Shown one piece after another: positions 3-11,942 of a stretch of DNA of 12,071 nt; position 1 is the stretch's first letter; each line of letters begins with the position of its first letter. Below the pieces are notes generated by a model. That model did no database searches and had not been told where the DNA came from. It was given only the letters and a program-made list of their open reading frames with translations. This stretch comes from Deltaproteobacteria bacterium (GTDB taxonomy: Bacteria > Desulfobacterota > Desulfobacteria > Desulfobacterales > B30-G6): contig QMMS01000119.1 in the NCBI GenBank assembly GCA_003647375.1, forward strand, positions 1-12,071, read 5' to 3'. The position numbers and the translations under genes were made by a program.

Positions 3-128
3 GTGTACAAGTCCCATATCCAGACCTGGAATCTGCCTAGCTTTGAAGATGTCATATACAAAATCGGCAACAACTCGGTCTGGACAGTCATCAAAAATGG
101 AAAGATTGTTGTGAGAAAAAACGCGTAA
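3..128 (+). CDS. C-terminal end of a probable amidohydrolase (partial)
   Basis: The frame is open from the window edge and ends at a TAA at 126-128, giving 41 residues that end in VWTVIKNGKIVVRKNA. The pattern of a segment like HIQTWNLPSFEDVIYKIG followed by V-x-x-V-I-x-N-G-K-I-V-V is what closes metal-dependent amidohydrolases of the ATZ/TRZ and cytosine deaminase type, where the last strands form the small beta-sandwich domain. No catalytic residues are inside the window, so the family call rests only on this tail. It reads in the same direction as the lyase gene 126 bases downstream. If it is in the same unit, it could open the ring of a later (thio)hydantoin or imidazolone intermediate. 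That job is inference. Confidence 0.5.
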   Translation: MYKSHIQTWNLPSFEDVIYKIGNNSVWTVIKNGKIVVRKNA

Positions 129-254
129 CCCCCAGCGTTACAAAAACCGGAGGGCTTCAGAGTCAAGGCATCTAAGGGATTTTTTAAACGAACTGCAGAA
201 TATCGAACAAGAAACATTGAATTAATAGTTACATTATTTAAGAGGCCTATCATC

Positions 255-1817
255 ATGGTAGCTATAGAAATAACAGGAAAAGCACTGACCATCGAGGAGG
301 TCAATGCGGTTGCCAACGCAAGGGCAACGGTAAAGCCTCTCGGTCCGGAGACAGCATCCCGTATGACCGCCACACACCAGTGGCTGAACAAAGCCATTCA
401 AAAGCGGGATACCGTGTTTTACGGCATCAACACCGGATTCGGGTCCCATGCCAATGAGACCATCGATCCGGACCAGGCCGGCATCCTGTCCAGAAATGTC
501 ATTCTGGCAGACGTAGCCGGCATCGGTGGCCCCTTACCCGAAGCCATTGTTCGAGCAATGATGGTTATCAGAGCCAACACCATGGCCGGCGGACCATCCG
601 GTATCCGGCCGGTGGTTGTTGAGACCCTGATCGGCATGCTCAACAAGGGTGTCACCCCATACGTCCCGGAAAAGGGTTCTCTGGGGGCCAGCGGTGATCT
701 GGTACCCCTGGCCACGATTGCGGCTGTGGCAACCTGCGATGCCGACGGGGGAGGATACAGCGGCAAGGCCTGGTATAAGGGTGAGCTGATGAGCGGTGAA
801 GAAGCCATGCGCCAGGCCGATATCCCCAGGCTCAATCTGGTGGCCAAAGAAGGAAATTCCATGATCAACGGCACCGCGTTCATGGCTGCCGTGGGTTGCC
901 TATCTGTTGAAAAGTGCGAAAAACTGATCCGGCATTCTGAAATTGCCGCGGCCATGAGTATGGAAGCCCTGTTGGCGGTATCGGCTGCCTTTCACCCGTC
1001 TCTGCACGAAGCTGCAAACCAGAAAGGGCAGATATCCGTGGCCGAAAATGTAAGAAACCTGCTACAGGGCAGCCAACTGGTGGATTCCACGGACAGGGTT
1101 CAGGATGCGTACTGCCTGCGGTGTATTCCCCAGGTATTAGGGCCGGTCAAAGACACCATCGCGTTTGCCCGGGGATACATCGAACGAACCCTGAACGCCG
1201 GTATCGACAATCCGCTGATCCTCGATTCGAATGGAGAGGAGCCTTATGCGTGCATATCGGGTGGAAACTTTCACGGGGAGGGTCTGGCGTTCATAATGGA
1301 TTTTTTATCCATTGTCATGTCCGAGGTTGCCAATATTTCCGATAGACGTTCATTCGCCCTGCTCACGCCTGCCTTGAATTACGGACTTCCTTCCATGTTG
1401 ATACCCGCAAACGGTCTCAACACCGGGTTGATGGTTGCGCAATATGCCGCCGCTGCACTGGTATCGGACAACAAGACCCTTGCCCATCCGGACAGCGTCG
1501 ATTCGATTCCCACCAGCGCAAACCAGGAGGACCATGTGAGCATGGGGGCCAATGGTGCCCGGCATCTATGGGAGATTCTTGAAAACGTAACCAACGTGAT
1601 TGCCATCGAATTCCTTTGTGCGGCGCAGGCTGTCGATCTCCGGGAAGACGGTCCCCGGCGCCTCGGCCAGGGATCTCGAATCGCCCATGCTGTGGTTCGA
1701 AAAAATGTGGCTTTCTATGACAAAGACAAGGAGATGTCGCCGGATATCGCCCGGCTGGCGCAATTGATCAAAGGGGAGAAAATACTCGAGGCGCTGATGG
1801 GTATTCAAAAACAATAA
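255..1817 (+). CDS. hutH: Histidine ammonia-lyase family enzyme (MIO-type aromatic amino acid lyase) with altered substrate pocket
   Basis: This 520-residue protein has the full length of HAL (about 510). It should eliminate the amine from a histidine-like substrate to give a urocanate-like product in the cytoplasm. The Ala145-Ser146-Gly147 triad, in GSLGASGDLVPL, forms the MIO electrophile. Catalytic Tyr56 sits in YGINTGFG. Asn205, Gln283, Tyr286, Arg289, Phe339, Met393 and Glu425 match the Pseudomonas HAL active-site residues N195, Q277, Y280, R283, F329, M382 and E414. The ring-selectivity pair, Ser-His in HAL (H83), is Ala85-Asp86 here. A short insertion lies between the MIO loop and Asn205. 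The ATG at 255 is preceded by AAGAGG at 240-245. The symbol marks the family only: with a urocanase-like and an MttB-like gene downstream, the true substrate may be a methylated or thiolated histidine. The family is certain; the substrate is not. Confidence 0.9.
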   Translation: MVAIEITGKALTIEEVNAVANARATVKPLGPETASRMTATHQWLNKAIQKRDTVFYGINTGFGSHANETIDPDQAGILSRNVILADVAGIGGPLPEAIVRAMMVIRANTMAGGPSGIRPVVVETLIGMLNKGVTPYVPEKGSLGASGDLVPLATIAAVATCDADGGGYSGKAWYKGELMSGEEAMRQADIPRLNLVAKEGNSMINGTAFMAAVGCLSVEKCEKLIRHSEIAAAMSMEALLAVSAAFHPSLHEAANQKGQISVAENVRNLLQGSQLVDSTDRVQDAYCLRCIPQVLGPVKDTIAFARGYIERTLNAGIDNPLILDSNGEEPYACISGGNFHGEGLAFIMDFLSIVMSEVANISDRRSFALLTPALNYGLPSMLIPANGLNTGLMVAQYAAAALVSDNKTLAHPDSVDSIPTSANQEDHVSMGANGARHLWEILENVTNVIAIEFLCAAQAVDLREDGPRRLGQGSRIAHAVVRKNVAFYDKDKEMSPDIARLAQLIKGEKILEALMGIQKQ

Positions 1818-1870
1818 AAAACAGGCTCCAAGAGTCCGAGGGGTCGAGGAGGATACACATTTTTAGCTTT

Positions 1871-1900
1871 AAGCAGTAAACTGTAAGCGGCTTACTGCTT
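1871..1900. repeat. Inverted repeat (hairpin) after the lyase gene
   Basis: AAGCAGTAA at 1871-1879 pairs perfectly with TTACTGCTT at 1892-1900 around a 12-base loop. No T-run follows, so it is not a convincing intrinsic terminator. It may stabilise the 3' end of the lyase transcript or mark an old insertion point, since the GxxExxY cassette starts only 19 bases later. The preceding bases 1828-1850 are a GGGTCCAAGGGG-like stretch that recurs in later gaps. Confidence 0.5.
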
Positions 1901-1918
1901 ATAGCTATACTGAATTGA

Positions 1919-1941
1919 AGAAATTTCGTAACTATTCAGCC
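1919..1941 (+). repeat. Left 23-bp terminal inverted repeat of the GxxExxY cassette
   Basis: The repeat begins AGAAATTTCGTAAC and ends TATTCAGCC. It is the exact reverse complement of 2372-2394. The match stops at both ends (1918 and 1942 do not pair). It is followed by CACAGATTCACACAGATGAA, a short internally repeated motif of a type often seen next to GxxExxY genes. Confidence 0.85.
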
Positions 1942-1955
1942 ACAGATTCACACAG

Positions 1956-2381
1956 ATGAACGCAGCTATGTTTAAACACAAAGAAATTACAGATATTATA
2001 CTTAGAAGTTTTTATGAAGTTTATAATGAGCTTGGCGATGGATTTCTGGAATCTGTCTATGAAAATGCCTTATATATTGTCCTGACTGGATATGGACTAT
2101 GTGTAAAAAAGCAGAAAGATATTTCTGTGTTTTTTCGAGGTAAAGAAATCGGGGGTTTTAAGGCAGACTTGATTGCAAACGAAAAAGTGATCGTTGAGCT
2201 AAAAGCAGTTCGTGTCCTGGCCACTGCACATGAAGCACAATTAATCAATTACTTGAAGGCAACAAATATTGAAGTTGGCTTATTATTAAATTTCGGCAGA
2301 AAACCGGAATTTAAAAGATTTGTATATGATAATAAAAGAAAAAATATCAGTGATGATCAGCGTAGATCGGCGGCTGAATAG
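1956..2381 (+). CDS. GxxExxY family protein
   Basis: A 141-residue protein of the GxxExxY family, defined by the signature G29-x-x-E32-x-x-Y35 inside NELGDGFLESVYENAL. An acidic and lysine triad, Asp71, Glu81 and Lys83 (KADLI...VIVELKAV), matches the PD-(D/E)xK nuclease fold to which this family has been related. The biological function is not established. Two starts are possible. ATG 1956 begins MNAAM and lies in the CACAGATG repeat. ATG 1968 begins MFKHKEITD, which fits how family members usually start, so it may be the true one; neither has a clear Shine-Dalgarno. The product shows no link to the enzymes on either side and is best read as cargo of the inverted-repeat cassette. Confidence 0.85.
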   Translation: MNAAMFKHKEITDIILRSFYEVYNELGDGFLESVYENALYIVLTGYGLCVKKQKDISVFFRGKEIGGFKADLIANEKVIVELKAVRVLATAHEAQLINYLKATNIEVGLLLNFGRKPEFKRFVYDNKRKNISDDQRRSAAE

Positions 2382-2394
2382 TTACGAAATTTCT
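2372..2394 (-). repeat. Right 23-bp terminal inverted repeat of the GxxExxY cassette
   Basis: It begins GGCTGAATAG and ends AAATTTCT, and is the exact reverse complement of 1919-1941. It includes the TAG stop of the GxxExxY gene and ends 22 bases before the Shine-Dalgarno of the urocanase-like gene. Confidence 0.85.
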
Positions 2395-2428
2395 ACATAT
2401 TTTATCGCTAATAATAGGGAGGAAACGC

Positions 2429-4162
2429 ATGAAACCGGAAATCTTGTATGAAGTGAAAGCCCAACGCGGGGATACCCTGCGTTGTAAGGGGTGGAAACAG
2501 GAGACCCTTTTGAGAATGCTGGAAAACAACATGGAAAATGCCGAAGCACCGGAATACCTGGTGATCTACGGCGGCATCGGCAAATGCGCACGCAACTGGG
2601 AATCCTACCATGCCATTGTCGATTCCCTCAAGAACCTGGAAAACAATGAGACTCTGGTTGTGCAGTCGGGTATGCCCGTTGCCGTATTCAAAACCCACAA
2701 GCTCGCACCCCGGGTGGTCATGGCAACCACCAACATCATGAAAGCCACCTGGCCCATATTTTATGACCTCCAGGAAAAAAACCTCACCATGTTCGCCCAA
2801 TACACTGCAGCACCATGGGAATATATTGGAACCCAGGGGGTAATCCAGGGCACCTTCGAAACGCTGGGCGCCATCGCAGATCAGCATTTCAACAGTTCCC
2901 TGGTGGGAAGAATCCTTCTGACGGCCGGCCACGGGGGCATGGGCGCCAACCAGCCCCGGGCCATGAACATGCACGGCGGCGTCTGCATCGACGTGGATGT
3001 CAACGAAGCCATTATCGGCAAGCGCATCAAACTCGGATTCACCGACGTCAAGGCCAAGAGCCTGGATGCGGCCATTGAAATGGCCAAACAGGCGGCCGCA
3101 GAAAAAAAGGCCCTTGCCATCGGTGTTGTGGGAAATGCCGCCACCCTGTTCTGGGAAGCATACGACAAGAACTTCGAACCCGACATCGTCACCGAAATGT
3201 GCCCCTGCCATGATCCGCTTTCCTACATACCCGAAGGGTATACCCCGGCGGAGGCCGAAGATCTCAGGGTTGAAAACCGCGATGGCTATCTCGAAAAAGC
3301 CCGTGAATCCATGGTCAAACAGTTGAGAGCCATGAATGCTTTCTCCAAAAAAGATGGGATCCAGGTATTTGAATATGGTACATCTATTCGAAAAGAGTGC
3401 CGTGATGCCGGTATGCCGGAGGAAGAGGCCATGACCATACCGGGGTTTGTAGCTGAGTATATTCGCCCCTTGTTCTGTGAAGGTCGGGGTCCTTTTCGCT
3501 GGACCTGTATTTCCGGGGATGCGGGTGATCTTAAACGCCTGGACGATCTGGCTCTGGAGATGTTTCCAGAGGACAAACTGACGGTGAAATGGATCAATCT
3601 GGCCCGGGAAACCCTGCCCATCGAAGCACTTCCGGCCCGTGTATGCTACCTGGGCTTCGGAGAGAGAAAGGCCTTTGCCCTCAAAGTCAATGAGCTCATC
3701 AAAAAGGGTGACGTAAAAGGTCCCGTCGCTTTTTCCCGGGACAACCTGGACTCCGGATCCATCGTGAACCCCACCTTTGAGTCGGAGAAGATGAAGGACG
3801 GCGGGGATCTGATATCAGACTGGCCCATGCTCAATGCGCTCCTGAACTGCGCGGCCATGTGTGATCTCATCGCTATTCAGGCCAATTACTCCATGGGGGA
3901 AGCAGTTCATACCGGCGTAACCATGATAGCCGATGGCAGCGACGAGGCCGATTTTCGCCTGGATGCGTGTATGACTACCGACTCTGGTATCGGTGTAGTG
4001 CGCCATGCCCAGGCAGGATATGAAACAGCCCGTGAAACGGCTGAGGGACGTGGCAAATTGACCAGCGACAGTATCAAGGTGCCCCTCTGGTGGAGCCCTG
4101 TTGCAACCTTCGGTCCCGAAGGCGGTCGGCAACTGCGTCGAAGTGCACACACCAAGGAATAA
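2429..4162 (+). CDS. hutU: Divergent urocanate hydratase family protein (candidate thiourocanate or modified-urocanate hydratase)
   Basis: The protein has 577 residues against about 555 for HutU. Urocanase adds water across urocanate using tightly bound NAD+ as an electrophile. Shared landmarks are YGGIGKCARNW (47-57), VVQSGMPVAVFKTH (77-90), LTAGHGGMGANQPRA (164-178), RPLFCEGRGPFRW (346-358) and LPARVCYLGFGER (401-413), whose Cys406 matches the active-site Cys410 of the Pseudomonas enzyme. Several signature parts are changed. TSAHDPLNGYLP has become MCPCHDPLSYIP, DYGNNIR has become EYGTSIR, and the glycine-rich HHGGGVGMGYS segment has become a glycine-poor ANYSMGEAVH (485-494). The C-terminus carries an extra WW-containing tail. 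The start is set by GGGAGG at 2417-2422, six bases before the ATG. The symbol marks the family only. Downstream of a lyase with a changed pocket, it probably hydrates that lyase's product; the exact substrate is inference. Confidence 0.85.
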   Translation: MKPEILYEVKAQRGDTLRCKGWKQETLLRMLENNMENAEAPEYLVIYGGIGKCARNWESYHAIVDSLKNLENNETLVVQSGMPVAVFKTHKLAPRVVMATTNIMKATWPIFYDLQEKNLTMFAQYTAAPWEYIGTQGVIQGTFETLGAIADQHFNSSLVGRILLTAGHGGMGANQPRAMNMHGGVCIDVDVNEAIIGKRIKLGFTDVKAKSLDAAIEMAKQAAAEKKALAIGVVGNAATLFWEAYDKNFEPDIVTEMCPCHDPLSYIPEGYTPAEAEDLRVENRDGYLEKARESMVKQLRAMNAFSKKDGIQVFEYGTSIRKECRDAGMPEEEAMTIPGFVAEYIRPLFCEGRGPFRWTCISGDAGDLKRLDDLALEMFPEDKLTVKWINLARETLPIEALPARVCYLGFGERKAFALKVNELIKKGDVKGPVAFSRDNLDSGSIVNPTFESEKMKDGGDLISDWPMLNALLNCAAMCDLIAIQANYSMGEAVHTGVTMIADGSDEADFRLDACMTTDSGIGVVRHAQAGYETARETAEGRGKLTSDSIKVPLWWSPVATFGPEGGRQLRRSAHTKE

Positions 4163-4163
4163 A

Positions 4164-4375
4164 TTAGAAATTCGAATATCGAAATTCGAAGCAAATCCAA
4201 ATATCGAATGCTCAAATGACCAAAACATAGCCTTTGGGCTTGAATGTCATACGGTTTGTTTTGAGCATTCGATATTTTTGTCATTTGATATTGCCCTTCG
4301 GCGTTGCTCAGGGCGGTGAGCCTGTCGAACCGTTTAGAATTTCGAATTTCGTGCTTCGGATTTGAAACTTGAATA
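4164..4375. repeat. Palindromic MITE- or REP-like element between hydratase and methyltransferase genes
   Basis: Almost the whole gap is one imperfect palindrome. The core arms AAATATCGAATGCTCAAA (4199-4216) and its exact complement (4260-4277) form an 18-bp stem around about 43 bases. Outer flanks rich in GAAATTCGAA-type words (4164-4190 and 4334-4363) pair only partly. No open frame with gene-like composition or Shine-Dalgarno lies inside, and no transposase is present. It looks like a dispersed non-autonomous repeat. Confidence 0.7.
4291..4329. repeat. CCCTTCGGC...GGTGAGCCTGTCGAAC repeat embedded in the palindromic element
   Basis: This stretch resembles a very widely dispersed bacterial repeat, read on the other strand as TTCGACAGGCTCACCGCCC. 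It can fold with GCTCA (4306-4310) pairing to TGAGC (4317-4321), or GCCCT with AGGGC. Its presence inside the right half of the larger palindrome breaks the symmetry of that element and suggests one repeat nested in another. Confidence 0.5.
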
Positions 4376-4389
4376 TAAGGAGAGCCCAA

Positions 4390-5847
4390 ATGCCCCACAA
4401 CCCACGTCTTCGATTTCTCACCGAAAACGAAGAAATCCTTATTTATGAAAAATGCCTCAATATTCTTTCGAATAAGGGCGTGAAAATCGAATATCCAAAG
4501 GCGCTGGCCATACTAAAAAGAGCAGGCGCAGACGTCGATGACAAGGCCGAGCAGGTTCGTTTCAGCCGGGACATGATCGAAGCGGCTCTGGAAACGGTAC
4601 CCCACAGCTTCACGGTCAAGGGAAGTCACGAGAAACACGATTTTGTGGTCCCCCACCCAACAGGATCCTTTTACACCAGCACCTGTGTCCAGACCATGCA
4701 GTATCACGACCCGGATATCAACACATTCGTGGATGTCACCAGGCAAAGCCTTGCCGAGTGGACCCAGCTCGCCGACAGATTGGAAAATATACATAAAATT
4801 GCCATGCAGACACCCATGGACGTCCCCTACGAAACCGCCGACGTGCATTCCCTGAACATCCACCTGCAGAACACGTCCAAACCCCTGATGGTACTGGCAT
4901 ACTGTCCCGAAACCGTGGATTTTCTGTTCGAGCTGATGCTCGCAAAGGCAGGCAGCGTTGAAGCGTTGAAGGAAAGACCCATGCTCCTTACCTACCCCAC
5001 ATCCCTTTCGCCGCTTCAATTCAAACCCATGGACATGGAGACCATCCTCCAGTCCTGCCGATATGGCGTTCCTGTGGTGGCCAACTCCCTGGCCATTTCA
5101 GGTGCAACCGCGCCGATAACCGTTGCAGGGACCGTTCTCCTGGCCAGCATCGAAATTCTCGCCATGGTCGTGATGACCCAGATTTTTCAGCCCGGAACGC
5201 CGGTCATCGGATCTGTTTACACCACCAGCATGGATATGGCCACCGGCAACGCGCTTCTGGGGAATGCCGAAAGCATGCTTGGCCGGGCGGCGGCGTCCCA
5301 ATTCATCAAGAACAGATTCGACATCCCGGTGGAAACATTTTCCTTCATGACCGATTCCTATCTGTCGGACGGACAGGCCCTGGTTGAAAAATCCTTGATG
5401 CCGGCGTTGCTGGACCTTGCAGGAAGTGATATTCAATACGGCGCCGGAAGGCTGGGTGGGGCCACGGCAGCCAGCCCGATTCAGCTGATCATCGACGATC
5501 AGCTGTTCACCATCATTCAAAAATGTAACGGCCCCGTGGTGGTAAATGATGACACCCTGGCATTGCAGGATATTCTGGACAACTCGCCCGATGGAAATTT
5601 TGTGACCACCGATCACACCCTGCGATACTGCAGGGACAACATTCGTCCCAGCCTGTTTGTTGCCGACAGTTTGGATCACCGGCAAACAAAAGGTGCCAAA
5701 GGTCTTTACGAACGCGCCGTGGAAAGGTATAAGGAACTTCGAATGCAACTGGCCCCCCCGTCTCTACCCGATGATATTCGGCGTGATATGAACAGCGTCG
5801 TAAAAAAAGCCGATGACCACCTGGTGGGGAAACCGGGGTCCAAGTAG
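4390..5847 (+). CDS. MttB-family (trimethylamine methyltransferase-like) corrinoid methyltransferase, non-pyrrolysine
   Basis: This 485-residue protein covers the full length of the MttB family (about 495). Such enzymes move a methyl group from an amine to a cobalt corrinoid protein. True trimethylamine MttB has an in-frame amber codon read as pyrrolysine near residue 334. Here the frame is uninterrupted and the region reads TDSYLSDGQALVEK (321-334), placing it with the non-pyrrolysine branch. Characterised members of that branch demethylate quaternary amines such as glycine betaine, proline betaine or carnitine. Other family-like stretches are SLAISGATAPITVAGTVLLASIEILA (233-258) and IQYGAGRLGGATAASP (348-363). 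AAGGAG at 4377-4382, seven bases before the ATG, sets the start and rules out an upstream TTG. No corrinoid protein or activating enzyme is visible nearby. In this context a histidine betaine or its product is a plausible substrate (inference). Confidence 0.88.
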   Translation: MPHNPRLRFLTENEEILIYEKCLNILSNKGVKIEYPKALAILKRAGADVDDKAEQVRFSRDMIEAALETVPHSFTVKGSHEKHDFVVPHPTGSFYTSTCVQTMQYHDPDINTFVDVTRQSLAEWTQLADRLENIHKIAMQTPMDVPYETADVHSLNIHLQNTSKPLMVLAYCPETVDFLFELMLAKAGSVEALKERPMLLTYPTSLSPLQFKPMDMETILQSCRYGVPVVANSLAISGATAPITVAGTVLLASIEILAMVVMTQIFQPGTPVIGSVYTTSMDMATGNALLGNAESMLGRAAASQFIKNRFDIPVETFSFMTDSYLSDGQALVEKSLMPALLDLAGSDIQYGAGRLGGATAASPIQLIIDDQLFTIIQKCNGPVVVNDDTLALQDILDNSPDGNFVTTDHTLRYCRDNIRPSLFVADSLDHRQTKGAKGLYERAVERYKELRMQLAPPSLPDDIRRDMNSVVKKADDHLVGKPGSK

Positions 5848-5851
5848 AGAC

Positions 5852-5896
5852 TCGGGCCCATAGGACCCGAAACTGAGTAAACCCTATACGGGTTTA
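5852..5896. repeat. Two adjacent hairpins after the methyltransferase gene
   Basis: TCGGGCC (5852-5858) pairs with GGACCCGA (5863-5870) around CATA with one bulged A. TAAACCC (5878-5884) pairs perfectly with GGGTTTA (5890-5896) around TATAC. Neither is followed by a T-run. They could protect or partly terminate the upstream transcript and so lower expression of the importer genes. Confidence 0.5.
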
Positions 5897-5932
5897 AATA
5901 GCTTCAGCCATCGGTATAGCCAAATGGCTCTG

Positions 5933-5953
5933 GCCTGGCCAAAAAAACCAGGC
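5933..5953. repeat. Short hairpin upstream of the first permease start
   Basis: GCCTGG (5933-5938) pairs with CCAGGC (5948-5953) around a loop of CC and seven A residues. It lies between an upstream in-frame ATG (5924) and the preferred start (5984). This argues that the stretch is leader RNA rather than coding sequence. Confidence 0.4.
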
Positions 5954-5983
5954 TATTTACGCCAAAACGTATTTTGTAGGCCT

Positions 5984-6784
5984 ATGATAAATTCAATCTA
6001 TCGATTTTTTAAACGGATGCACCTCTTTGATATATTGGCATACCTGTTCCTTATGATCGGGGGAGCATTCTTCCTTCTGAAGGGTGCCGAAGATCAGGGA
6101 TATTACTGGCAGTGGTTTCGGATTCCCAAATATCTATATGAATTCGATGACGGACGATTCATTGCCGGACCCATTCTGAAAGGACTCAAGATAACCCTGA
6201 ATCTCACCTGGATCAGCCTTATTCTGACCTACATCATCGGGCTCGTCACGGCTTTGATGCGTCTTTCCAACTCGTTGCTGGCAAGAGGTATTGCCCGTGT
6301 CTATCTTGAGATTACGCGCAACACGCCATTACTGGTACAGATATTTTTCATGTATTTCGTTGTCGCACCGATTCTGGACATCGATCGTTTTGTAGCAGGT
6401 GTCCTGGCGCTGAGCTTGTTTGAAGGTTCCTATGCCTCGGAAATTTACCGGTCAGGCATCGTTGCCGTCAATAAGGGACAATGGGAAGCCTCCTACACCC
6501 TGGGGCTGAGCACGTACCAGAACTATCGCTATATCATCCTGCCCCAGGCCATACGGCGAATACTTCCGCCCTTGACCAGCCAGGCAGTTTCCCTGATCAA
6601 GGATTCGTCTCTGGTCAGCGTCATCGCCATATATGAGATGACCATGCAAGCCAATGAAATCGCCTCGGAGACATTTCTGGTATTCGAAATTTTTTTTACC
6701 ATCGCAGCAATTTACCTTGCGCTGGCCATCACGTTGTCACAGGTCGTGGCTTATTTTGAAAAGCGCTACAGGGTCGTGACGTAG
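5984..6784 (+). CDS. Amino acid-type ABC transporter permease (HisM/GlnP family)
   Basis: This 266-residue inner-membrane protein is part of a polar amino acid-type importer. Hydrophobic segments lie near residues 14-33, 69-91, 115-131, 136-150, 203-217 and 231-255. The cytoplasmic EAA loop that docks on the ATPase reads GQWEASYTLGL with the closing IILP (residues 165-187). LEITRNTPLLVQIFF (108-122) is typical of the family. The first periplasmic loop has WQWFRIPKYLYEFDD, also seen in the second permease, so the two are probably paralogues forming a heterodimer. The start at 5984 follows GTAGG at 5976-5980, at short spacing. An in-frame ATG at 5924 would add 20 residues but lacks a ribosome site and would overlap a hairpin. 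The substrate cannot be read from the permease. Confidence 0.9.
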   Translation: MINSIYRFFKRMHLFDILAYLFLMIGGAFFLLKGAEDQGYYWQWFRIPKYLYEFDDGRFIAGPILKGLKITLNLTWISLILTYIIGLVTALMRLSNSLLARGIARVYLEITRNTPLLVQIFFMYFVVAPILDIDRFVAGVLALSLFEGSYASEIYRSGIVAVNKGQWEASYTLGLSTYQNYRYIILPQAIRRILPPLTSQAVSLIKDSSLVSVIAIYEMTMQANEIASETFLVFEIFFTIAAIYLALAITLSQVVAYFEKRYRVVT

Positions 6785-6809
6785 CACGACAGGAGGATAG
6801 GCTGTTAGG

Positions 6810-6958
6810 CTGTAGGCGGAGATCGGTGAAGACGATCTAAAATACAGCGTTTTTCGGATAGAAAAATAAGTAAATATTTTGAATATGATGGAGGCTGAAA
6901 GCGTTCAAGGCACGCCGTCGGGCAACATGCTAAACACCTAATAGCCTACAGTCTAAAC
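6810..6958. repeat. Dispersed repeat words in the permease-ATPase gap
   Basis: CTGTAGGC (6810-6817, after a run of AGGCTGTTAGG) is the inverse of GCCTACAG (6944-6951). The 13-base word CTACAGTCTAAAC (6946-6958) recurs directly at 7939-7951 in the next gap. The rest of the 199-base gap shows no open frame with a ribosome site. These look like remnants of a dispersed repeat rather than a regulatory site. Confidence 0.4.
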
Positions 6959-6983
6959 AACCTGATCCTTATGAGGTACACGC

Positions 6984-7736
6984 ATGAGTTCTAAGGAGTT
7001 CGGTGATTACATTATCCACGTCGACGGAATCGGCAAGACGTTTACCAATGGTGTCGTGGCGCTGAAAGATTTTACCACGAACATTCGCCGCAGCGAAGTT
7101 GTGGTTTTAATCGGGCCGTCCGGATCCGGAAAGTCAACTTTTTTGCGGTGCCTGAACGGGCTGGAGGAAATCGATACAGGATCCATCACCATTGATGGTA
7201 TTCCCCTCGACGACAACAAGAAGAACCGCCTGGAGATCCGTAAGGAAGTGGGCATGGTATTCCAGCATTTCAACCTCTTTCCGCACCTTACGGTTCTGAG
7301 AAACATCTCCCTGGCACAAATACTCGTCCGCAAAAGGTCCAAAAGTGAGGCTGACGACGAAGCCATGCAGCTGCTGAATAAAGTGGGCATTTCAGAAAAA
7401 GCAGACGCATTTCCAAGCCAACTCAGCGGCGGACAGCAGCAACGGGTGGCCATTGCCAGGGCGTTGGCAATGAAACCAAAAGTGATGATGTTCGATGAAG
7501 CCACCAGTGCCCTGGACCCGGAAATGATCGGGGAAGTTCTCGAGGTGATGAAAGCCCTTGCGATTGAGGGAATGACCATGGTTGTCGTTACCCACGAAAT
7601 GGGATTTGCCCGGGAAGTCAGCGACTGGGTTATATTTATGGAAGATGGCATGAAGGTGGAGGAAGGCACGGCGGATCACTTTTTCACCGAGCCTAAAATG
7701 GATCGCACCAAACTGTTTCTGAGTCAGATACTATGA
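6984..7736 (+). CDS. Amino acid-type ABC transporter ATP-binding protein (HisP/GlnQ family)
   Basis: This 250-residue cytoplasmic ATPase powers the importer and is the usual length for GlnQ/HisP. All nucleotide-binding parts are intact: Walker [10 protein letters not shown] (44-52), Q-loop Gln94 in VFQHFNLFP, signature LSGGQ (147-151), Walker B VMMFDE (167-172) followed by ATSALDPE, and the switch His204 in VTHEMGFA. The ATG follows GAGGT at 6973-6977 with a six-base spacer. It lies 199 bases after the permease, an unusually wide gap for an operon. The stop codon touches the first base of a 12-bp hairpin, so this part of the message may have its own 3' end. Confidence 0.93.
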
Positions 7737-7772
7737 AATTTGGATCATCTCCAAAAGAGTTGATCCAAATTT
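7736..7772 (+). terminator. 12-bp hairpin starting at the ATPase stop codon (terminator-like, no T-run)
   Basis: AAATTTGGATCA (7736-7747) pairs perfectly with TGATCCAAATTT (7761-7772) around a 13-base loop. The bases that follow are AGGGTACGAGGGG, not a U-tract, so efficient intrinsic termination is doubtful; an mRNA-stabilising role is as likely. A closely related hairpin follows the binding-protein gene at 9033-9065. Confidence 0.5.
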
Positions 7773-7841
7773 AGGGTACGAGGGGCGGAGGGTGATACAA
7801 GGGTCCGAGGGTGGCTAAAGGCCTATAGCTGAGGGCAACTC

Positions 7842-7886
7842 AATAAACCCAACAAACACAATGAACACAATAAACACAATAAACCC
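7842..7886. repeat. Five tandem copies of a nine-base unit (AATAAACAC-like)
   Basis: Consecutive units read AATAAACCC, AACAAACAC, AATGAACAC, AATAAACAC and AATAAACCC with no spacing, so the first and last are identical. All cytosines fall at fixed positions. The array is a simple short tandem repeat, and its copy number could vary between strains. Confidence 0.85.
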
Positions 7887-7988
7887 GATGTAGGGTCCAA
7901 GGGTTGCCGAAGACAATCAGCAATAAGCAGCTAACAGTCTACAGTCTAAACTCCTAAAAAGCTAACAAAGGGTTCGAGTGATATTACT

Positions 7989-8097
7989 CCGGCGGTTAAA
8001 TACCCCACGGTTGTCATTCCCGCGGAGGCGGGAATCCAGAAAGACACTGGATGCCGGATCAAGTCCGGCATGACGGGGTTGGCTATTTAGTCACCGG
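7989..8097. repeat. REP-like folded palindromic element
   Basis: The element is built of nested inverted repeats. ATTCCCGC (8016-8023) pairs with GCGGGAAT (8028-8035), TGCCGGA (8052-8058) with TCCGGCA (8064-8070), ATCCAG (8034-8039) with CTGGAT (8047-8052), and GTCAT (8013-8017) with ATGAC (8070-8074). Outer flanks CCGG...TAAATA...CCCC (7989-8006) and GGGG...TATTTA...CCGG (8075-8097) also mirror each other. The core GTCATTCCCGC...GCGGGAATCCAG...CTGGATGCCGG is a repeat known from many Gram-negative genomes. Confidence 0.75.
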
Positions 8098-8104
8098 GTT
8101 AATA

Positions 8105-8119
8105 TGTTAAAAGTTAACA
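8105..8119. promoter_or_regulatory. Possible operator upstream of the binding-protein gene
   Basis: TGTTAA (8105-8110), AAG, TTAACA (8114-8119) is a perfect dyad in an A+T-rich stretch about 65 bases before the start codon. It is the size of a repressor half-site pair. TTAACA followed 15 bases later by TATGAA (8135-8140) loosely resembles a sigma-70 promoter with short spacing. Both are weak sequence-only suggestions. Confidence 0.25.
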
Positions 8120-8183
8120 ATTCGGCAAAAGTCATATGAATGTTGTTTGAATTCACCCACATTACAAAAAGGAGACCAAGACG

Positions 8184-9032
8184 ATGAAAAAAAAGATCAT
8201 GGGACAAAAACGTGTGATAACGGTTGCTACGGCAGTTATGATGGCACTGATGTTCTGCCTTGCAGGATCTGTGGCCGCCGATGATATCAACAAGCAACTC
8301 ACTAAATCCAGCATCATTGACAAGGTTATGCGCAAGGGTAAACTGCGGGTTGGCCTCGCCACATTTGTACCCTGGGCCATGCAGGACAAAAAGGGAGAGT
8401 GGGTTGGATTCGAGATAGATGTAGCCAAACAACTGGCCGAGGACATGGACGTCAAAATTGAATTTGTGCCCACCAAGTGGGAAGGCCTCATTCCTTCGCT
8501 CCTGACCGGCAAATTTGATCTGATTATCGCCGGTATGACCGGAACACCCCAGCGGGCCTTGAAAATCAACTTCACCAATCCTTACGATTATTCAGGTATG
8601 AATGTCGTGGTCCACAAGAATTTTGCAGCAGGCGTCACCGACTATATGGACCTTGACAAGAAAGGCAACACGATTATATCACGTGTGGGCACCACCGGTG
8701 CTGCTTTGGCCAAAGCAACTTTCAAGAATGCCACAGTCCGACTGTTTCCCGACGAAGGCCCCATGGTGCAGGAACTGCTGAATGGTAAAGCTGCCGCGTT
8801 CCTGGGTTCAGCGCCACAGCCGGCCCAGTTGGCTGCCAAGTATCCCGAAACCCTCATGTTTCTGGACAAGAATCTGGTCCAGCAGCCCATCTGCATCGGC
8901 GTCCCCAAGGGCGACCCGGACACCCTGGCCTATCTGAACAACTGGATCACGACGGTTCGCAACAACGGTTTCATCCAGAAAAAAGTTGAATACTGGTGGC
9001 AGAGCCTTGAGTGGGAAGCTTTGCTTAAATAA
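8184..9032 (+). CDS. Periplasmic amino acid-type ABC substrate-binding protein (SBP_bac_3 family)
   Basis: This 282-residue secreted protein would capture the substrate for the importer. A signal peptide is clear: KKK at the N-terminus, hydrophobic residues 11-28, and a cleavage site after Val30-Ala31-Ala32. Family motifs include GKLRVGLATFVPWAMQDKKG (52-71), WVGFEIDVAKQLAEDM, GLIPSLLTGKFDLIIAGMT and TPQRALKINFTNPY, whose Arg124 matches the Arg that binds the substrate carboxylate. The partner Asp that holds the alpha-ammonium in HisJ, GlnH and LAO proteins (D161 in the HisJ sequence QDEVAA) is replaced by Ser209 in GKAAAFLGSAPQ. A Trp (W64) stands where Phe is common in the ligand pocket. 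This would suit a ligand without a free ammonium, for example a betaine (inference). AAGGAG at 8169-8174 sets the start. Confidence 0.9.
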   Translation: MKKKIMGQKRVITVATAVMMALMFCLAGSVAADDINKQLTKSSIIDKVMRKGKLRVGLATFVPWAMQDKKGEWVGFEIDVAKQLAEDMDVKIEFVPTKWEGLIPSLLTGKFDLIIAGMTGTPQRALKINFTNPYDYSGMNVVVHKNFAAGVTDYMDLDKKGNTIISRVGTTGAALAKATFKNATVRLFPDEGPMVQELLNGKAAAFLGSAPQPAQLAAKYPETLMFLDKNLVQQPICIGVPKGDPDTLAYLNNWITTVRNNGFIQKKVEYWWQSLEWEALLK

Positions 9033-9065
9033 ATTTGGATCACCTTCTAAAAAGCTGATCCAAAT
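9033..9065 (+). terminator. Hairpin directly after the binding-protein stop codon (terminator-like, no T-run)
   Basis: ATTTGGATCA (9033-9042) pairs with TGATCCAAAT (9056-9065) around a 13-base loop. It copies the hairpin after the ATPase gene in stem sequence, loop length and position next to the stop codon. The following TAGGGTCCAAGGGG also copies the downstream flank. No U-tract follows. Confidence 0.5.
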
Positions 9066-9153
9066 ATAGGGTCCAAGGGGTCAAGGATTCCAGGGTCCGA
9101 GTGACACGAAGTGAAGCATCAGCGCTCAATACAAACGGTTTAGAACCACATGC

Positions 9154-9186
9154 AATAGTGCCGGCAGAAAATGCCGGCACTATTTT
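9154..9186 (+). terminator. Intrinsic terminator between binding protein and second permease
   Basis: AATAGTGCCGGCA (9154-9166) pairs perfectly with TGCCGGCACTATT (9172-9184) around GAAAA, giving a 13-bp G+C-cored stem that runs straight into TTTT, then ACTATAACC. The tail is short but the stem is strong. It would end or reduce transcription from the binding-protein gene before the last permease, which lies 140 bases further on. Confidence 0.7.
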
Positions 9187-9265
9187 ACTATAACCTGAAC
9201 TGAGCGATTTTTCCCGAACCCTTGATCCGCAAGAGTCGGTATTAGGTTTTTGTTTTCATTCATCA

Positions 9266-9296
9266 TTGGACGTTCGATGTTCGATGTTGGACGTTC
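9266..9296. repeat. TTGGACGTTC direct repeat upstream of second permease
   Basis: TTGGACGTTC occurs at 9266-9275 and again at 9287-9296, separated by GATGTTCGATG, which repeats the same GTTCGATG rhythm. Such GACGTTCGATG strings are dispersed repeats in this kind of genome. No Shine-Dalgarno or operator can be claimed from it. Confidence 0.5.
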
Positions 9297-9326
9297 ATTT
9301 TTTAAAATTGTCAGAGTGAAGACTCT

Positions 9327-10211
9327 ATGCTCAAAAAAAATATCCAATTAAAAAAATCTGACGTTATTGCAGGCGCCATTCTCCTGATCGCCGGCGTGGC
9401 CATATATTACCGGGTGGAAATCGGGCTCAACTACAAATGGAACTGGCATCAAATCCCCCAATTTTTGTACCGTTTCGATGATGAGAGCGGAAAATGGGTA
9501 TCCAACGTGTTGATGTGGGGCCTGTTCAACACCATCCGCCTCAGCATCTTTGGCACCATTCTGGCCATTATTCTGGGCACAGTCATGGGTATCTGCCGCT
9601 CATCCAAGGTAGTATTTCTGAGGCTGATCAGTGGCACCTATGTCGAAACCATGCGCAACCTGCCACCCCTGGTAATCATCTTTATCGTCTATTTTTTTAT
9701 CGGAACCCACCTCCTGCCCTACAGCGGTATCGGAGACGCTTTGGAAGGCAAGGATAACTTCCTGGTAACACTTGTGACCGTCTGTCTGGCTCCACCGGAA
9801 CAGCTCACGACATTCCTGTCCGCTCTCTTTACTCTGGCAATCTTCGAAGGTGCCTATATCACCGAAATTGTCAGGGCCGGAATCCAGTCCATTCGCAGAG
9901 GCCAGTGGGAAGCAGCCCACTCCCTGGGCATGACAAAATATCAGATGATGCGATACATCATACTGCCTCAGGCCTTTCAGCGTATTTTACCGCCAATGGC
10001 CGGCCAATTTGTTTCCCTGATCAAAGACTCCTCCATCGTTTCCGTCATTTCCATACCCGAACTCTCCTTCCGGGCCAATGAACTCATGACCGGCACCTTG
10101 CTCACCATGGAGATCTGGATCACCGTTACAATCCTATATCTGATGCTTACACTACCCTGCTCCATCGCCATCCAGAAATTAGAAGATCGTGTGGCCAGAG
10201 GGCTACAGTAA
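9327..10211 (+). CDS. Amino acid-type ABC transporter permease (HisM/GlnP family), second subunit
   Basis: This 294-residue inner-membrane protein is the probable heterodimer partner of the permease at 5984. Hydrophobic segments lie near residues 12-29, 67-90, 114-132, 161-180, 226-243 and 259-282. The EAA loop is RGQWEAAHSLGMTKYQ with the closing IILP (191-214), and YVETMRNLPPLVIIF (105-119) is the family core. Like its partner it carries WNWHQIPQFLYRFDD in the first periplasmic loop. It has about 28 extra residues (131-158) between the third and fourth segments. The ribosome site is weak (GAGTGAAG before the ATG). An intrinsic terminator separates it from the binding-protein gene, so its expression depends on read-through or its own promoter. 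It ends 15 bases from the convergent minus-strand gene. Confidence 0.9.
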   Translation: MLKKNIQLKKSDVIAGAILLIAGVAIYYRVEIGLNYKWNWHQIPQFLYRFDDESGKWVSNVLMWGLFNTIRLSIFGTILAIILGTVMGICRSSKVVFLRLISGTYVETMRNLPPLVIIFIVYFFIGTHLLPYSGIGDALEGKDNFLVTLVTVCLAPPEQLTTFLSALFTLAIFEGAYITEIVRAGIQSIRRGQWEAAHSLGMTKYQMMRYIILPQAFQRILPPMAGQFVSLIKDSSIVSVISIPELSFRANELMTGTLLTMEIWITVTILYLMLTLPCSIAIQKLEDRVARGLQ

Positions 10212-10226
10212 TAGGGAAATATAGAT

Positions 10227-11942
10227 CTATTTTCCAAAGGAGCAAGCAGGATAAATACATGGTTGGCATTCCAGGCACAGCCCGCCATGCCCCAGGGCGG
10301 CAAGGTCCTTTCTTGTGATGGTCAATCCAGCTAGAAGTCTTGGCAGCAAAATATCAAAACTGGTGGTTTTGTGGAAGAGGCCACATGCAGGCACGCCCAT
10401 CACCTGTACGTCGCCGATGTGTGAAAGAAGTGTCATGGCACCGGGAAGAATTGGAGCGCCATACAACAGATCGGTGCATCCTGCATCTACAAGGCCCTGC
10501 CGGGTAACATCATCAGGATCGACAGACAATCCCGCCGTTGTCACAATCAGGTCTGCGCCGATTTTTATCATTTTCTTGACGCCCTCTGAAATCGCCCCAC
10601 GATCATCCGGGACAATACATGCATCAACCACAGAGCATTCAAATTTTTCAACTTTTGATTTAACAATTGGGATAAAACTATCTTGAATCAAACCCCTGAA
10701 GATTTCGGTGCCGGTTACCAGTATTCCCACGTTTAACTTCCTGAGGGGGAGCACCCGGAATAGGGGTCCCGAACGAAGTGCCGCCATGGCACGTTCAAAT
10801 TCATTTTCAGCAAGAAATAGCGGAATGGCTCTGGTTGCAGCCAAGGTATCGCCTTTTTGTATGACATCGAAACACTTCCGGGATGCGCACATGACTCCGG
10901 GAAAACCATTAAACAGCTCCAGGCGGACGGTATCGACCTCGAACAATCCATCTGCCGAAGCTGTCAGTTCAGTCTTGCCCTCGTGAGGATTGTCCTGAAA
11001 CGTGACGCCCTCACCGGCCATACATCCGGCAAAGGCTAGTGCGACCTGGTCTTCATGAATAAATCCTTCAACCGATTTGGAATCATCTTCAATGTAAACA
11101 TGCTGTCTTCCCATTTTCTGCAATCGGCAGATGTCGCCGGGTTCAATGATTTGCCCCTGTTTAAAAGCCGGACCTTTTTTTTCCCCGGGAATAATTTCCG
11201 TCATGTCATGAACCAGACGCTTTCCTACAGCCTCTTCGGCGGAGACCCGCTTAACCGCGGGAGTTCTTTTTAACGGGTTTTCCTTCCTGGAAGTATCCGG
11301 CATCCGGTATGGCGTCTCGCCTTGGCACACCCGGCAGATATTACCGTGATTCAAGGGAAACGCCTCCCCGCAGCCGGTGCAGGTATCGATTGCCCCCTTG
11401 CTGACTTTTTTAAGGTGCCGAGGTTGGATTTCAATGTGCTCAATATTCAAAACGTGCTCGCCGGCGGCTTGGATGTCTTTGTATAGGGCCTCTGAATCCT
11501 GCTCGCGTTTGGTTTTTGTTTTGTAAAGCCAGGCGTGCAACTCCGGCCATTTTTTCAGCCGAGGCGAATCGATACTGACCCTTACCCCTTTTCCTGTATA
11601 TTTGTCATAAAGTGATAGTGCATAGCGCCCCAGATCCATGACCTTCAGCCAGTTGTTGCCGACCGTGCAGGGGGTGAGGACCTGAACGGCGTCGGGCAGG
11701 CAGCTACGGGTTTCTGTAACAGCATCAAACAGGATGTTCTCGGGCAGGTGCTGCATCGCCAGTGATACCATCCTGACCCCCAAAATGAGTCCCGGGGCAG
11801 GATAGCCATGAAACGCACGCGCCACCTCCAGTGATTCTTCAAATGTGTAACGCTTTCCCTTGTGGTCGCTGCACCAATATAATGATGAGGGGGATTGTCT
11901 TGTTGTCTCTTGGGTGATCGGGCCTGTGTATTTTTTCTGCAT
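10227..11942 (-). CDS. FmdE-domain / MoeA-like molybdopterin-binding fusion protein
   Basis: This 571-residue, probably cytoplasmic protein has at least three parts. Residues about 30-135 resemble FmdE of formylmethanofuran dehydrogenase (FEESLEVARAFHGYPAPGLILGVRM, then SCLPDAVQVLTPCTVG), but the FHGHxCPG motif has Ala49 in place of Cys. A zinc-ribbon follows (C188-x2-C191, C203-x2-C206). Residues from about 232 resemble MoeA, and 403-540 form a molybdopterin-binding MoCF domain (NVGILVTGTEIFRG, ADLIVTTAGLSVDPDDVT). The C-terminus is a Cys cluster, CLECQPCIYPAC (556-567). The likely role is molybdenum or tungsten cofactor handling for an oxidoreductase; the partner enzyme is not in the window. 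The ATG has only AGGTAG upstream, and an 18-codon frame ends six bases before it. It shows no functional link to the converging importer. Confidence 0.85.
   Translation of the reverse strand: MQKKYTGPITQETTRQSPSSLYWCSDHKGKRYTFEESLEVARAFHGYPAPGLILGVRMVSLAMQHLPENILFDAVTETRSCLPDAVQVLTPCTVGNNWLKVMDLGRYALSLYDKYTGKGVRVSIDSPRLKKWPELHAWLYKTKTKREQDSEALYKDIQAAGEHVLNIEHIEIQPRHLKKVSKGAIDTCTGCGEAFPLNHGNICRVCQGETPYRMPDTSRKENPLKRTPAVKRVSAEEAVGKRLVHDMTEIIPGEKKGPAFKQGQIIEPGDICRLQKMGRQHVYIEDDSKSVEGFIHEDQVALAFAGCMAGEGVTFQDNPHEGKTELTASADGLFEVDTVRLELFNGFPGVMCASRKCFDVIQKGDTLAATRAIPLFLAENEFERAMAALRSGPLFRVLPLRKLNVGILVTGTEIFRGLIQDSFIPIVKSKVEKFECSVVDACIVPDDRGAISEGVKKMIKIGADLIVTTAGLSVDPDDVTRQGLVDAGCTDLLYGAPILPGAMTLLSHIGDVQVMGVPACGLFHKTTSFDILLPRLLAGLTITRKDLAALGHGGLCLECQPCIYPACSFGK

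What the first reader, a model, noticed from the sequence alone, without database searches (positions are those of the whole stretch)
3..10211. Candidate catabolic island for a methylated imidazole amino acid (hercynine or ergothioneine) rather than histidine
Seen: a HAL-family lyase, a urocanase-family hydratase, a pyrrolysine-free MttB-family methyltransferase and a complete amino acid-type ABC importer lie on one strand, with an amidohydrolase tail just upstream. Known: HAL and urocanase homologues act in ergothioneine breakdown (ergothionase releases trimethylamine, then thiourocanate is hydrated), and non-pyrrolysine MttB proteins demethylate quaternary amines. A plain Hut operon has no use for a methyltransferase. 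Inference: the importer takes up a histidine betaine, the MttB-like enzyme strips methyl groups to a corrinoid (before or after the lyase), and lyase plus hydratase degrade the imidazole part. My recollection, not checked, is that the structurally studied Treponema ergothionase does not rely on MIO; an intact ASG triad here would then favour hercynine or a demethylated product over direct trimethylamine elimination.
Basis: partly seen in the sequence, partly recalled or inferred. Interest (0 to 1): 0.85.

Follow-up and report, generated by a model that had tools for sequence, protein, structure and literature searches.

The report
Sulfate reducers' modified-histidine breakdown gene cluster
Anaerobic sediment bacteria carry a second, specialised copy of the histidine-breakdown pathway joined to a vitamin-B12-type demethylating enzyme and an importer, which points to a methylated or otherwise altered histidine as food, although the exact compound is still unknown.

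Summary
The genes are as described: amidohydrolase tail (it matches HutI), HAL-type lyase with intact ASG, urocanase, pyrrolysine-free MttB, polar-amino-acid importer. A GxxExxY gene within inverted repeats is an insertion. The set is real: 6 of 6 Desulfobacterota genomes found through this MttB encode the window-type urocanase; in 389 genomes of one order the MttB is in 5, all among the 10 with that urocanase. Relatives supply HutI, FtcD and a formimino cyclodeaminase, which implies that ring carbon C2 carries H and argues against ergothioneine. The same six genomes hold an ordinary HutH and a second urocanase, so this is a parallel pathway. The lyase keeps its catalytic residues but has Asp for HutH His83 (69 of 70 close relatives, one gap); urocanase and HutI have concerted pocket changes; the urocanase is sister to thiourocanate hydratases. 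The binding protein lacks the usual amino-group Asp. Best reading: anaerobic breakdown of an altered, methylated histidine, methyls going to corrinoid and folate. Hercynine fits importer and MttB but not the altered ring pockets; a ring-N-methylated histidine fits the pockets but not the importer. The substrate is unproven.

The parts
3..128 (+). C-terminal 41 residues of HutI-type imidazolonepropionase (cut by the window's start)
   Evidence: Matches the last residues of L001 HutI, which scores 371 bits against TIGR01224 (cut-off 298)
255..1817 (+). MIO-type lyase, group A: ASG intact at residues 145-147, Asp86 where HutH has His83, Asn201 where group B has Leu
   Evidence: tree
1916..2397 (.). 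Insertion: GxxExxY gene (1956-2381, +) inside inverted repeats 1916-1973 and 2340-2397; not part of the pathway
   Evidence: TIGR04256 128 bits > 35; repeats; absent between HAL and UROC in L001 and L002
2429..4162 (+). Special urocanase-type hydratase (UROC*): QYTAAPWE, EMCPCHD, IQ--ANYS in place of QMTAGSW, DQTSAHD, HHGGGVG
4390..5847 (+). MttB-superfamily methyltransferase without pyrrolysine (MttB1); the ORF opens at TTG 4369, but 10 of the 11 closest relatives are 485 aa, which fits ATG 4390
5924..6784 (+). ABC permease of the polar amino acid type
6984..7736 (+). ABC ATPase of the polar amino acid type
8184..9032 (+). Substrate-binding protein, SBP_bac_3; Ser (FLGSAP) where other family members have Asp (VYDLP, FQDEV)
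9327..10211 (+). Second ABC permease of the polar amino acid type

Best explanation
The window holds most of a dedicated anaerobic pathway for an altered, N-methylated histidine, running in parallel to an ordinary Hut pathway kept elsewhere in related genomes. The importer takes up a compound whose alpha-nitrogen is not a normal ammonium (inferred). MttB1, in relatives with a second paralogue MttB2, moves methyl groups to a corrinoid protein and on to folate (by family; not shown for this substrate). The MIO lyase removes the remaining amine, the special urocanase hydrates a urocanate analogue, special HutI opens the ring, and FtcD plus cyclodeaminase put the C2 carbon on folate, leaving glutamate or N-methylglutamate. 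C2 carries H; the ring change is most likely an N-substituent such as N-methyl. Shown by computation: gene content, conservation, co-occurrence, residue changes. Inferred: substrate, order of steps, direction of methyl flow.
For: Gene order kept in L001 and L002. Co-occurrence: 6 of 6 Desulfobacterota genomes reached through MttB1 have the special urocanase; order sample of 389 genomes: urocanase* in 10, MttB1 in 5, all 5 among the 10, expected overlap 0.13. 18 of 53 MttB homologue clusters on contigs of 5 kb or more share an exact contig length with a group A lyase or special urocanase (on part of the lists; shifted lengths gave 0.73 coincidences on average for all 89). The six genomes also hold a HutH-like lyase 42-44% identical with His83 and a long urocanase 30-33% identical. 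Lyase position 83: Asp in 69 of 70 group A rows (1 gap), Cys in 50 of 50 group B rows, catalytic residues kept (the 120 best-listed of 8000 hits); H82L abolishes GkHAL activity on histidine (PMC11432326, passages). Urocanase* sister to thiourocanate and S-methyl thiourocanate hydratases, 100/99 (long branches; those two named by NCBIfam). HutI* changes. Binding-protein Asp to Ser/Thr. Corrinoid proteins in 8 of 8 genomes, beside the MttB1 homologue in L007 and L008.
Against: MttB1 is missing from 5 of 10 order-sample genomes with the special urocanase, and L073 has group A lyase plus urocanase* with no MttB after them. L006 has urocanase*-MttB1 with no lyase in its 20 kb. In actinobacterial G007 and G008 an MttB1 homologue (55%) occurs without the special urocanase; in L008 it sits beside a canonical one. 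I know of no abundant natural compound that has both a methylated alpha-nitrogen and an N-methyl ring, so importer and ring evidence pull in different directions. A binding protein without the Asp (L098) is not near an MttB. The six genomes are MAGs and may be incomplete. The role of the binding-protein Asp and of the HutI Asp is recalled, not looked up.
Confidence: 0.5

Rival explanations
1. Hercynine (histidine betaine) pathway: importer takes hercynine, MttB1 and MttB2 strip alpha-N methyls, the lyase makes ordinary urocanate, and the rest is a diverged but functionally ordinary Hut pathway.
For: Binding protein lacks the amino-group Asp; a second non-Pyl MttB paralogue flanks the cluster in L001, L002 and L078; lyase amine pocket and MIO intact; FtcD and cyclodeaminase fit C2-H; in L008 an MttB1 homologue and a corrinoid protein stand beside a canonical urocanase.
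Against: Urocanase and HutI pockets are changed at positions kept in the roughly 30%-identical urocanases of the same genomes; lyase His83 replaced; Streptomyces L092 and group B lyases show the same core without a sign of MttB.
Confidence: 0.22
2. Ordinary histidine use plus an unrelated betaine module: the lyase, urocanase and HutI act on histidine intermediates, and MttB1 plus importer serve another quaternary amine, placed together because both feed folate.
For: NCBIfam cut-offs for hutH (546 > 539) and hutU (633 > 375) are reached; MttB1 absent in 5 of 10 genomes with the urocanase.
Against: An ordinary HutH and a second urocanase are already present in the six genomes; His83, DQTSxH and HxGGG lost; in 389 genomes of the order MttB1 was found only in genomes with the special urocanase, though not so in actinobacterial G007 and G008.
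Confidence: 0.15
3. Ergothioneine enters first and is desulfurised to hercynine by a molybdopterin enzyme of the acetylene hydratase type found beside the cluster, then follows the hercynine route.
For: A molybdopterin enzyme of about 690 residues lies beside the cluster in L003 and, cut, in L002 (83% identical over the shared part) and a 49% relative beside MttB2 in L078; acetylene hydratase is the second-best PDB match of the L078 protein; the metallopterin module of Caldithrix ergothioneine synthase is related to acetylene hydratase and exchanges sulfur between ergothioneine and trimethylhistidine (PMC9516567: abstract, passages and sections 5 and 8 seen).
Against: Another relative (about 50%) lies beside the ordinary HutH of G001 (L108); thiosulfate reductase is the better PDB match; none is in the window; no cysteine desulfurase domain was reported in these proteins.
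Confidence: 0.06

Closest known systems
Anaerobic Hut pathway (HutH, HutU, HutI, FtcD, cyclodeaminase)
   Same: Homologous enzymes for each step; L001 has all five
   Different: Altered substrate pockets in lyase, hydratase and HutI; added MttB and importer; second copy beside ordinary genes
Ergothioneine utilisation (ergothionase, thiourocanate hydratase, ErtD, ErtE)
   Same: The hydratase is sister to the thiourocanate and S-methyl thiourocanate hydratases
   Different: Keeps YGGIG and misses their cut-offs; formimino enzymes rather than hydantoin and carbamoyl enzymes in the loci read; lyase keeps the MIO triad
Corrinoid-dependent quaternary amine demethylation by non-Pyl MttB proteins (MtgB and relatives)
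   Same: MttB superfamily, no pyrrolysine, corrinoid proteins in the genomes
   Different: Subfamily linked to urocanate hydratases; 144 bits to the glycine betaine enzyme 9yce; substrate not tested
Bacterial Ntau-methylhistidine degradation (Beliaeva, Atac, Seebeck 2022; paper not held; known to me by recollection and by its citation in PMC11432326)
   Same: Would also need a lyase and hydratase for a ring-methylated substrate
   Different: I recall no MttB for it; could not be compared

Membership tests
HutH histidine ammonia-lyase | MIO triad and catalytic residues (Y53, N195, Q277, Y280, R283, F329, E414) | tested here: met
   kept in window, in 70 group A rows (one row gapped at Y53 and one at the triad) and in 50 group B rows
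HutH histidine ammonia-lyase | His83, needed for activity on histidine | tested here: not met
   Asp86 in window; Asp in 69 of 70 group A rows (1 gap), Cys in 50 of 50 group B; need for His from PMC11432326 passages
HutU urocanate hydratase | NCBIfam TIGR01228 cut-off | tested here: met
   633.2 against 375; the model also accepts thiourocanate hydratases
HutU urocanate hydratase | Motifs QMTAG[SG]W, DQTxxH, HxGGG of the canonical enzymes aligned here | tested here: not met
Thiourocanate or S-methyl thiourocanate hydratase | NCBIfam NF058530 or NF058531 cut-off | tested here: not met
   598.7 < 930 and 645.6 < 880
Ergothionase | Release of trimethylamine without MIO (recalled) | tested here: inconclusive
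   MIO triad intact; 6s7j is the 18th of 39 distinct PDB sequences matched, E 9.7e-54; its sequence was not aligned
Non-pyrrolysine MttB superfamily | PF06253 and open frame without pyrrolysine | tested here: met
   242.4 against 25 bits; Met at the pyrrolysine position
Non-pyrrolysine MttB superfamily | Methyl transfer from a quaternary amine to a corrinoid protein | not testable with these tools
   No corrinoid gene among the window's genes; corrinoid genes in 8 of 8 genomes
Polar amino acid ABC importer | Two permeases, ATPase, SBP_bac_3 protein | tested here: met
Polar amino acid ABC importer | Asp that pairs with the alpha-ammonium group (recalled) | tested here: not met
   Ser/Thr in window and 4 readable orthologues; Asp in 3 generic binding proteins (G003, G005, G006) and 2 HisJ-like ones

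The most novel reading that the evidence does not exclude
A so far undescribed catabolic route: corrinoid demethylation coupled to a ring-selective, parallel Hut pathway in sulfate reducers, with a new lyase and hydratase subfamily pair (also on a Streptomyces plasmid; a lyase of the kind also in Leptolinea) that acts on ring-N-methylated histidines, so that both the methyl groups and the ring C2 carbon enter folate-bound one-carbon metabolism.
Probability: 0.3. Interest if true: 0.8.

Novelty: new variant of a known kind. Interest (0 to 1): 0.62.

Why it matters
Methylated histidines (hercynine, ergothioneine, ring-methylated histidines of proteins) are widespread by general knowledge, yet their breakdown without oxygen is little known to me. 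The cluster gives testable enzymes, suggests that proteins named histidine ammonia-lyase and urocanate hydratase by automatic annotation act on something else, and would add a substrate class to the MttB superfamily.

Tried and rejected
Ergothioneine as the ring substrate was set aside because the accompanying enzymes handle a formimino group. Plain histidine was set back because an ordinary HutH and urocanase lie in the same genomes. The idea that the GxxExxY protein takes part was dropped: it is an insertion within inverted repeats. Rfam gave no match; promoter-like (17 found, 13.2 expected) and terminator-like (16 found, 13.9 expected) sites were near chance. A search for the special urocanase in 396 genomes of the phylum of G008 found none at E 1e-195; the tool warns that an empty answer shows nothing. 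G006's L024 lyase was tried as a way to reach the ergothionase sequence and turned out to resemble AdmH. No structure prediction was run: no coordinates are returned by that tool, so pockets could not be measured. Ten paper searches showed, in titles and abstract starts, no paper on this gene set; this is no proof of absence from print, as most subscription papers are not held. ErtD and ErtE were not searched for in the Desulfobacterota genomes. Two motif counts (EM and IQ) were placed at the wrong residue and are not used.
Full report
What is in the window. All pathway genes lie on the + strand: the last 41 residues of an imidazolonepropionase (3-128), an MIO lyase (255-1817), a urocanase-type hydratase (2429-4162), an MttB-family protein (ending 5847), and a four-gene polar amino acid importer (5924-10211). 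A 571-residue protein on the other strand (10227-11942; FmdE, treble-clef and MoCF_biosynth domains) follows and is not counted as part of it. A GxxExxY gene (1956-2381) sits between lyase and hydratase inside 58-nt inverted repeats that are 78% complementary; L001 and L002 lack it there. No genome is held for the window.

Is the set conserved? A genome-collection scan with an alignment of 29 MttB rows gave 8 loci. L001 and L002 have lyase, hydratase and MttB in the same order; L003, L005 and L006 have hydratase and MttB; L004 begins at the MttB. Importer genes follow the MttB in L001, L003 (after a molybdopterin enzyme), L004 and L005, lie on the opposite strand in L002, and were not seen in L006. 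L008 (Actinobacteria) has an MttB homologue (55%), a corrinoid protein and a canonical urocanase; L007 has the MttB homologue and a corrinoid protein. Counting special-urocanase loci that can be read on past the urocanase: the MttB is next in the window, L001, L002, L003, L005 and L006 and not in L073, L074, L076 and L077, 6 of 10; L075 and L078 end there. Five of those six were found through the MttB, so this count is biased. In an order-level sample of 389 genomes the special urocanase (E 1e-165) is in 10 and the MttB (E 1e-120) in 5, all 5 among the 10; independence would give 0.13. The five were already known from the MttB scan, so the fair statements are that no MttB1 was seen in the other 384 genomes (at most four candidates per genome were scored) and that 6 of 6 Desulfobacterota genomes reached through MttB1 hold the special urocanase. 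In a phylum-level sample of 395 genomes 30 have a match at E 1e-120, but only G002 has one of the special type (89%); the other 29 genomes are 42-48% identical. Against a strict link: G512, G570, G582, G759 and G763 have the urocanase but no MttB1 at E 1e-60, and G007 and G008 have the MttB homologue with urocanases only 45% identical. The binding protein's close relatives (81-89%) occur in G001-G005, on the contig of MttB1 and within about 6 kb of it each time. As a separate check, of the 53 MttB homologue clusters (out of 89 entered) whose longest contig is 5 kb or more, 18 share that exact contig length with a group A lyase or special urocanase cluster; with group B lyases the MttB list shares 2 lengths, with group A 16.

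The missing part of the pathway. In L001 a divergent GntR-type regulator is followed by a formimino cyclodeaminase-type protein, FtcD (405 bits against 221), HutI (371 against 298), lyase, hydratase, MttB and importer. L002 and L078 have the same head. FtcD and the cyclodeaminase carry a formimino group to folate, which implies that ring carbon C2 carries hydrogen. The cyclodeaminase-type protein reaches its Pfam model (167 bits), while the best NCBIfam model, a cyclohydrolase, is below cut-off (135 < 275).

A second, parallel Hut set. The six Desulfobacterota genomes with MttB1 also hold a HutH-like lyase (42-44% identical to the window's; His at position 83) and a long urocanase 30-33% identical. 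An ordinary HutI was seen beside them only in G002 and G003 and, at 43%, in G006. The special lyase itself was found in G001, G002 and G004 only; G003, G005 and G006 gave none, which may be incomplete assembly or true absence.

Altered pockets. Lyase: position 83 of Pseudomonas HutH, numbered through the printed alignment with 1gkm, is Asp in 69 of 70 group A proteins (one gap) and Cys in 50 of 50 group B proteins; group A is 66-93% identical to the window, group B 56-61%, together the 120 best-listed of 8000 hits. Streptomyces L092 has Asn. MIO and catalytic positions are kept. In Geobacillus HAL, H82L is inactive on histidine (PMC11432326, passages read). A tree unites groups A, B and Streptomyces apart from the ordinary lyases (100/99; Streptomyces is a long branch). 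Hydratase: QMTAG[SG]W becomes QYTAAPWE, DQTSxH becomes EMCPCH, HxGGG is lost; in the 120 best-listed relatives CPCHD, PW and RDN are kept in 120, QYTA in 115 (NYTA in 5), GGIG in 119. Streptomyces has EMTPAHD. A tree puts this clade beside 7ned and 8q9u (100/99, long branches that the program warns about), which NCBIfam names thiourocanate hydratase (1009 > 930) and S-methyl thiourocanate hydratase (965 > 880). Those two lost YGGIG; the window clade keeps it, as canonical enzymes do. HutI, nine Desulfobacterota rows: GAHA is GAHD in 8 and GAHE in L077; the residue three after the HxD histidine (HADE in 2bb0) is Ala in 9; the ATD motif is GTN in 7, ATN in L074, unreadable in L077. Streptomyces keeps GAHA and ATD but shares the Ala and the LDFA motif. 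That this Asp is the metal-bound catalytic one is recalled. FtcD is close to canonical. Concerted changes in three successive enzymes suggest that the ring itself is altered down to the HutI step; with C2 carrying H this leaves the nitrogens as the likeliest place. That is inference.

Importer and MttB. In ordinary members of the binding-protein family a conserved Asp (VYDLP, FQDEV) pairs with the amino group of the ligand (recalled). The window protein and four readable orthologues have Ser or Thr there; three generic binding proteins of G003, G005 and G006 and two HisJ-like ones keep Asp. L098, 46% identical and not near an MttB in 18 kb, also lacks it. EgtU binds the betaine group of ergothioneine by cation-pi contacts (PMC9732360, passages read); its binding domain is called subcluster F-III there, which I recall as a class other than this one. 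MttB1 has Met where the methyltransferase of 7xcl has pyrrolysine. A second MttB paralogue (23-24% identical to the window's, 67-82% among themselves) lies beside the cluster in L001, L078 and L002, and L002 has a third. Corrinoid proteins occur in 8 of 8 genomes.

Other contexts of the same hydratase. L074 and L006 show no lyase and carry an aconitase-X-type protein and a LarA-type racemase instead (both below NCBIfam cut-offs); L074 also has a TRAP transporter. This would fit entry through a hydroxy acid. L076 has a group B lyase (54%) and an antiporter-family transporter. Streptomyces L092 has IclR, lyase, hydratase, HutI and HutF (594 > 362), and no MttB match in its 29.7 kb. The core is thus wider than the MttB version.

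Weighing. Importer and MttB point to a quaternary nitrogen, that is hercynine-like; the ring pockets point to a ring-altered histidine. One compound class with both traits, or a ring-N-methyl substrate whose quaternary form MttB1 demethylates, would reconcile them, but nothing here proves either. I therefore commit to an altered, methylated histidine with C2-H, at about even odds, and give hercynine with a plain ring 0.22.

Noticed in passing
window 1916-2397: GxxExxY gene within 58-nt inverted repeats (78% complementary), absent between lyase and urocanase in L001 and L002: a small mobile insertion.
   Followed up: partly
window 10227-11942: Convergent protein with FmdE, treble-clef and MoCF_biosynth domains; possibly a molybdenum or tungsten cofactor protein.
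   Followed up: no
L090 11153-22595 and L091 11161-22477: Conjugative plasmids of Paraburkholderia graminis and Burkholderia ambifaria carry a compact cluster: ErtD and ErtE (above NCBIfam cut-offs in L090), a related hydratase (62-63%), a TRZ/ATZ-type amidohydrolase, a lyase with His83 and a HisJ-like importer; likely catabolism of a C2-altered histidine.
   Followed up: partly
L074 3698-4918 and 1975-3276; L006 13016-14230 and 16329-17564: Aconitase-X-type and LarA-type genes stand in clusters that show no lyase but hold the special urocanase, as if a hydroxy acid dehydratase replaced the ammonia-lyase.
   Followed up: partly
L003 3594-5663, L002 19669-21456 (cut), L078 8892-10988: Molybdopterin enzymes of about 690 residues beside the cluster; the L078 one is akin to thiosulfate reductase and acetylene hydratase. 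One relative also lies beside the ordinary HutH in L108.
   Followed up: partly
L001 358-1893, L078 7206-8753, L002 11430-12851 and 12882-14354: Further non-pyrrolysine MttB paralogues flank the cluster.
   Followed up: partly
L008 70-3905: Actinobacterial MttB1 homologue (55%), corrinoid protein and canonical urocanase in one row.
   Followed up: partly
L024 1450-3072: G006 lyase whose best PDB match is AdmH (E 4.7e-143), so perhaps an aminomutase rather than HutH.
   Followed up: no
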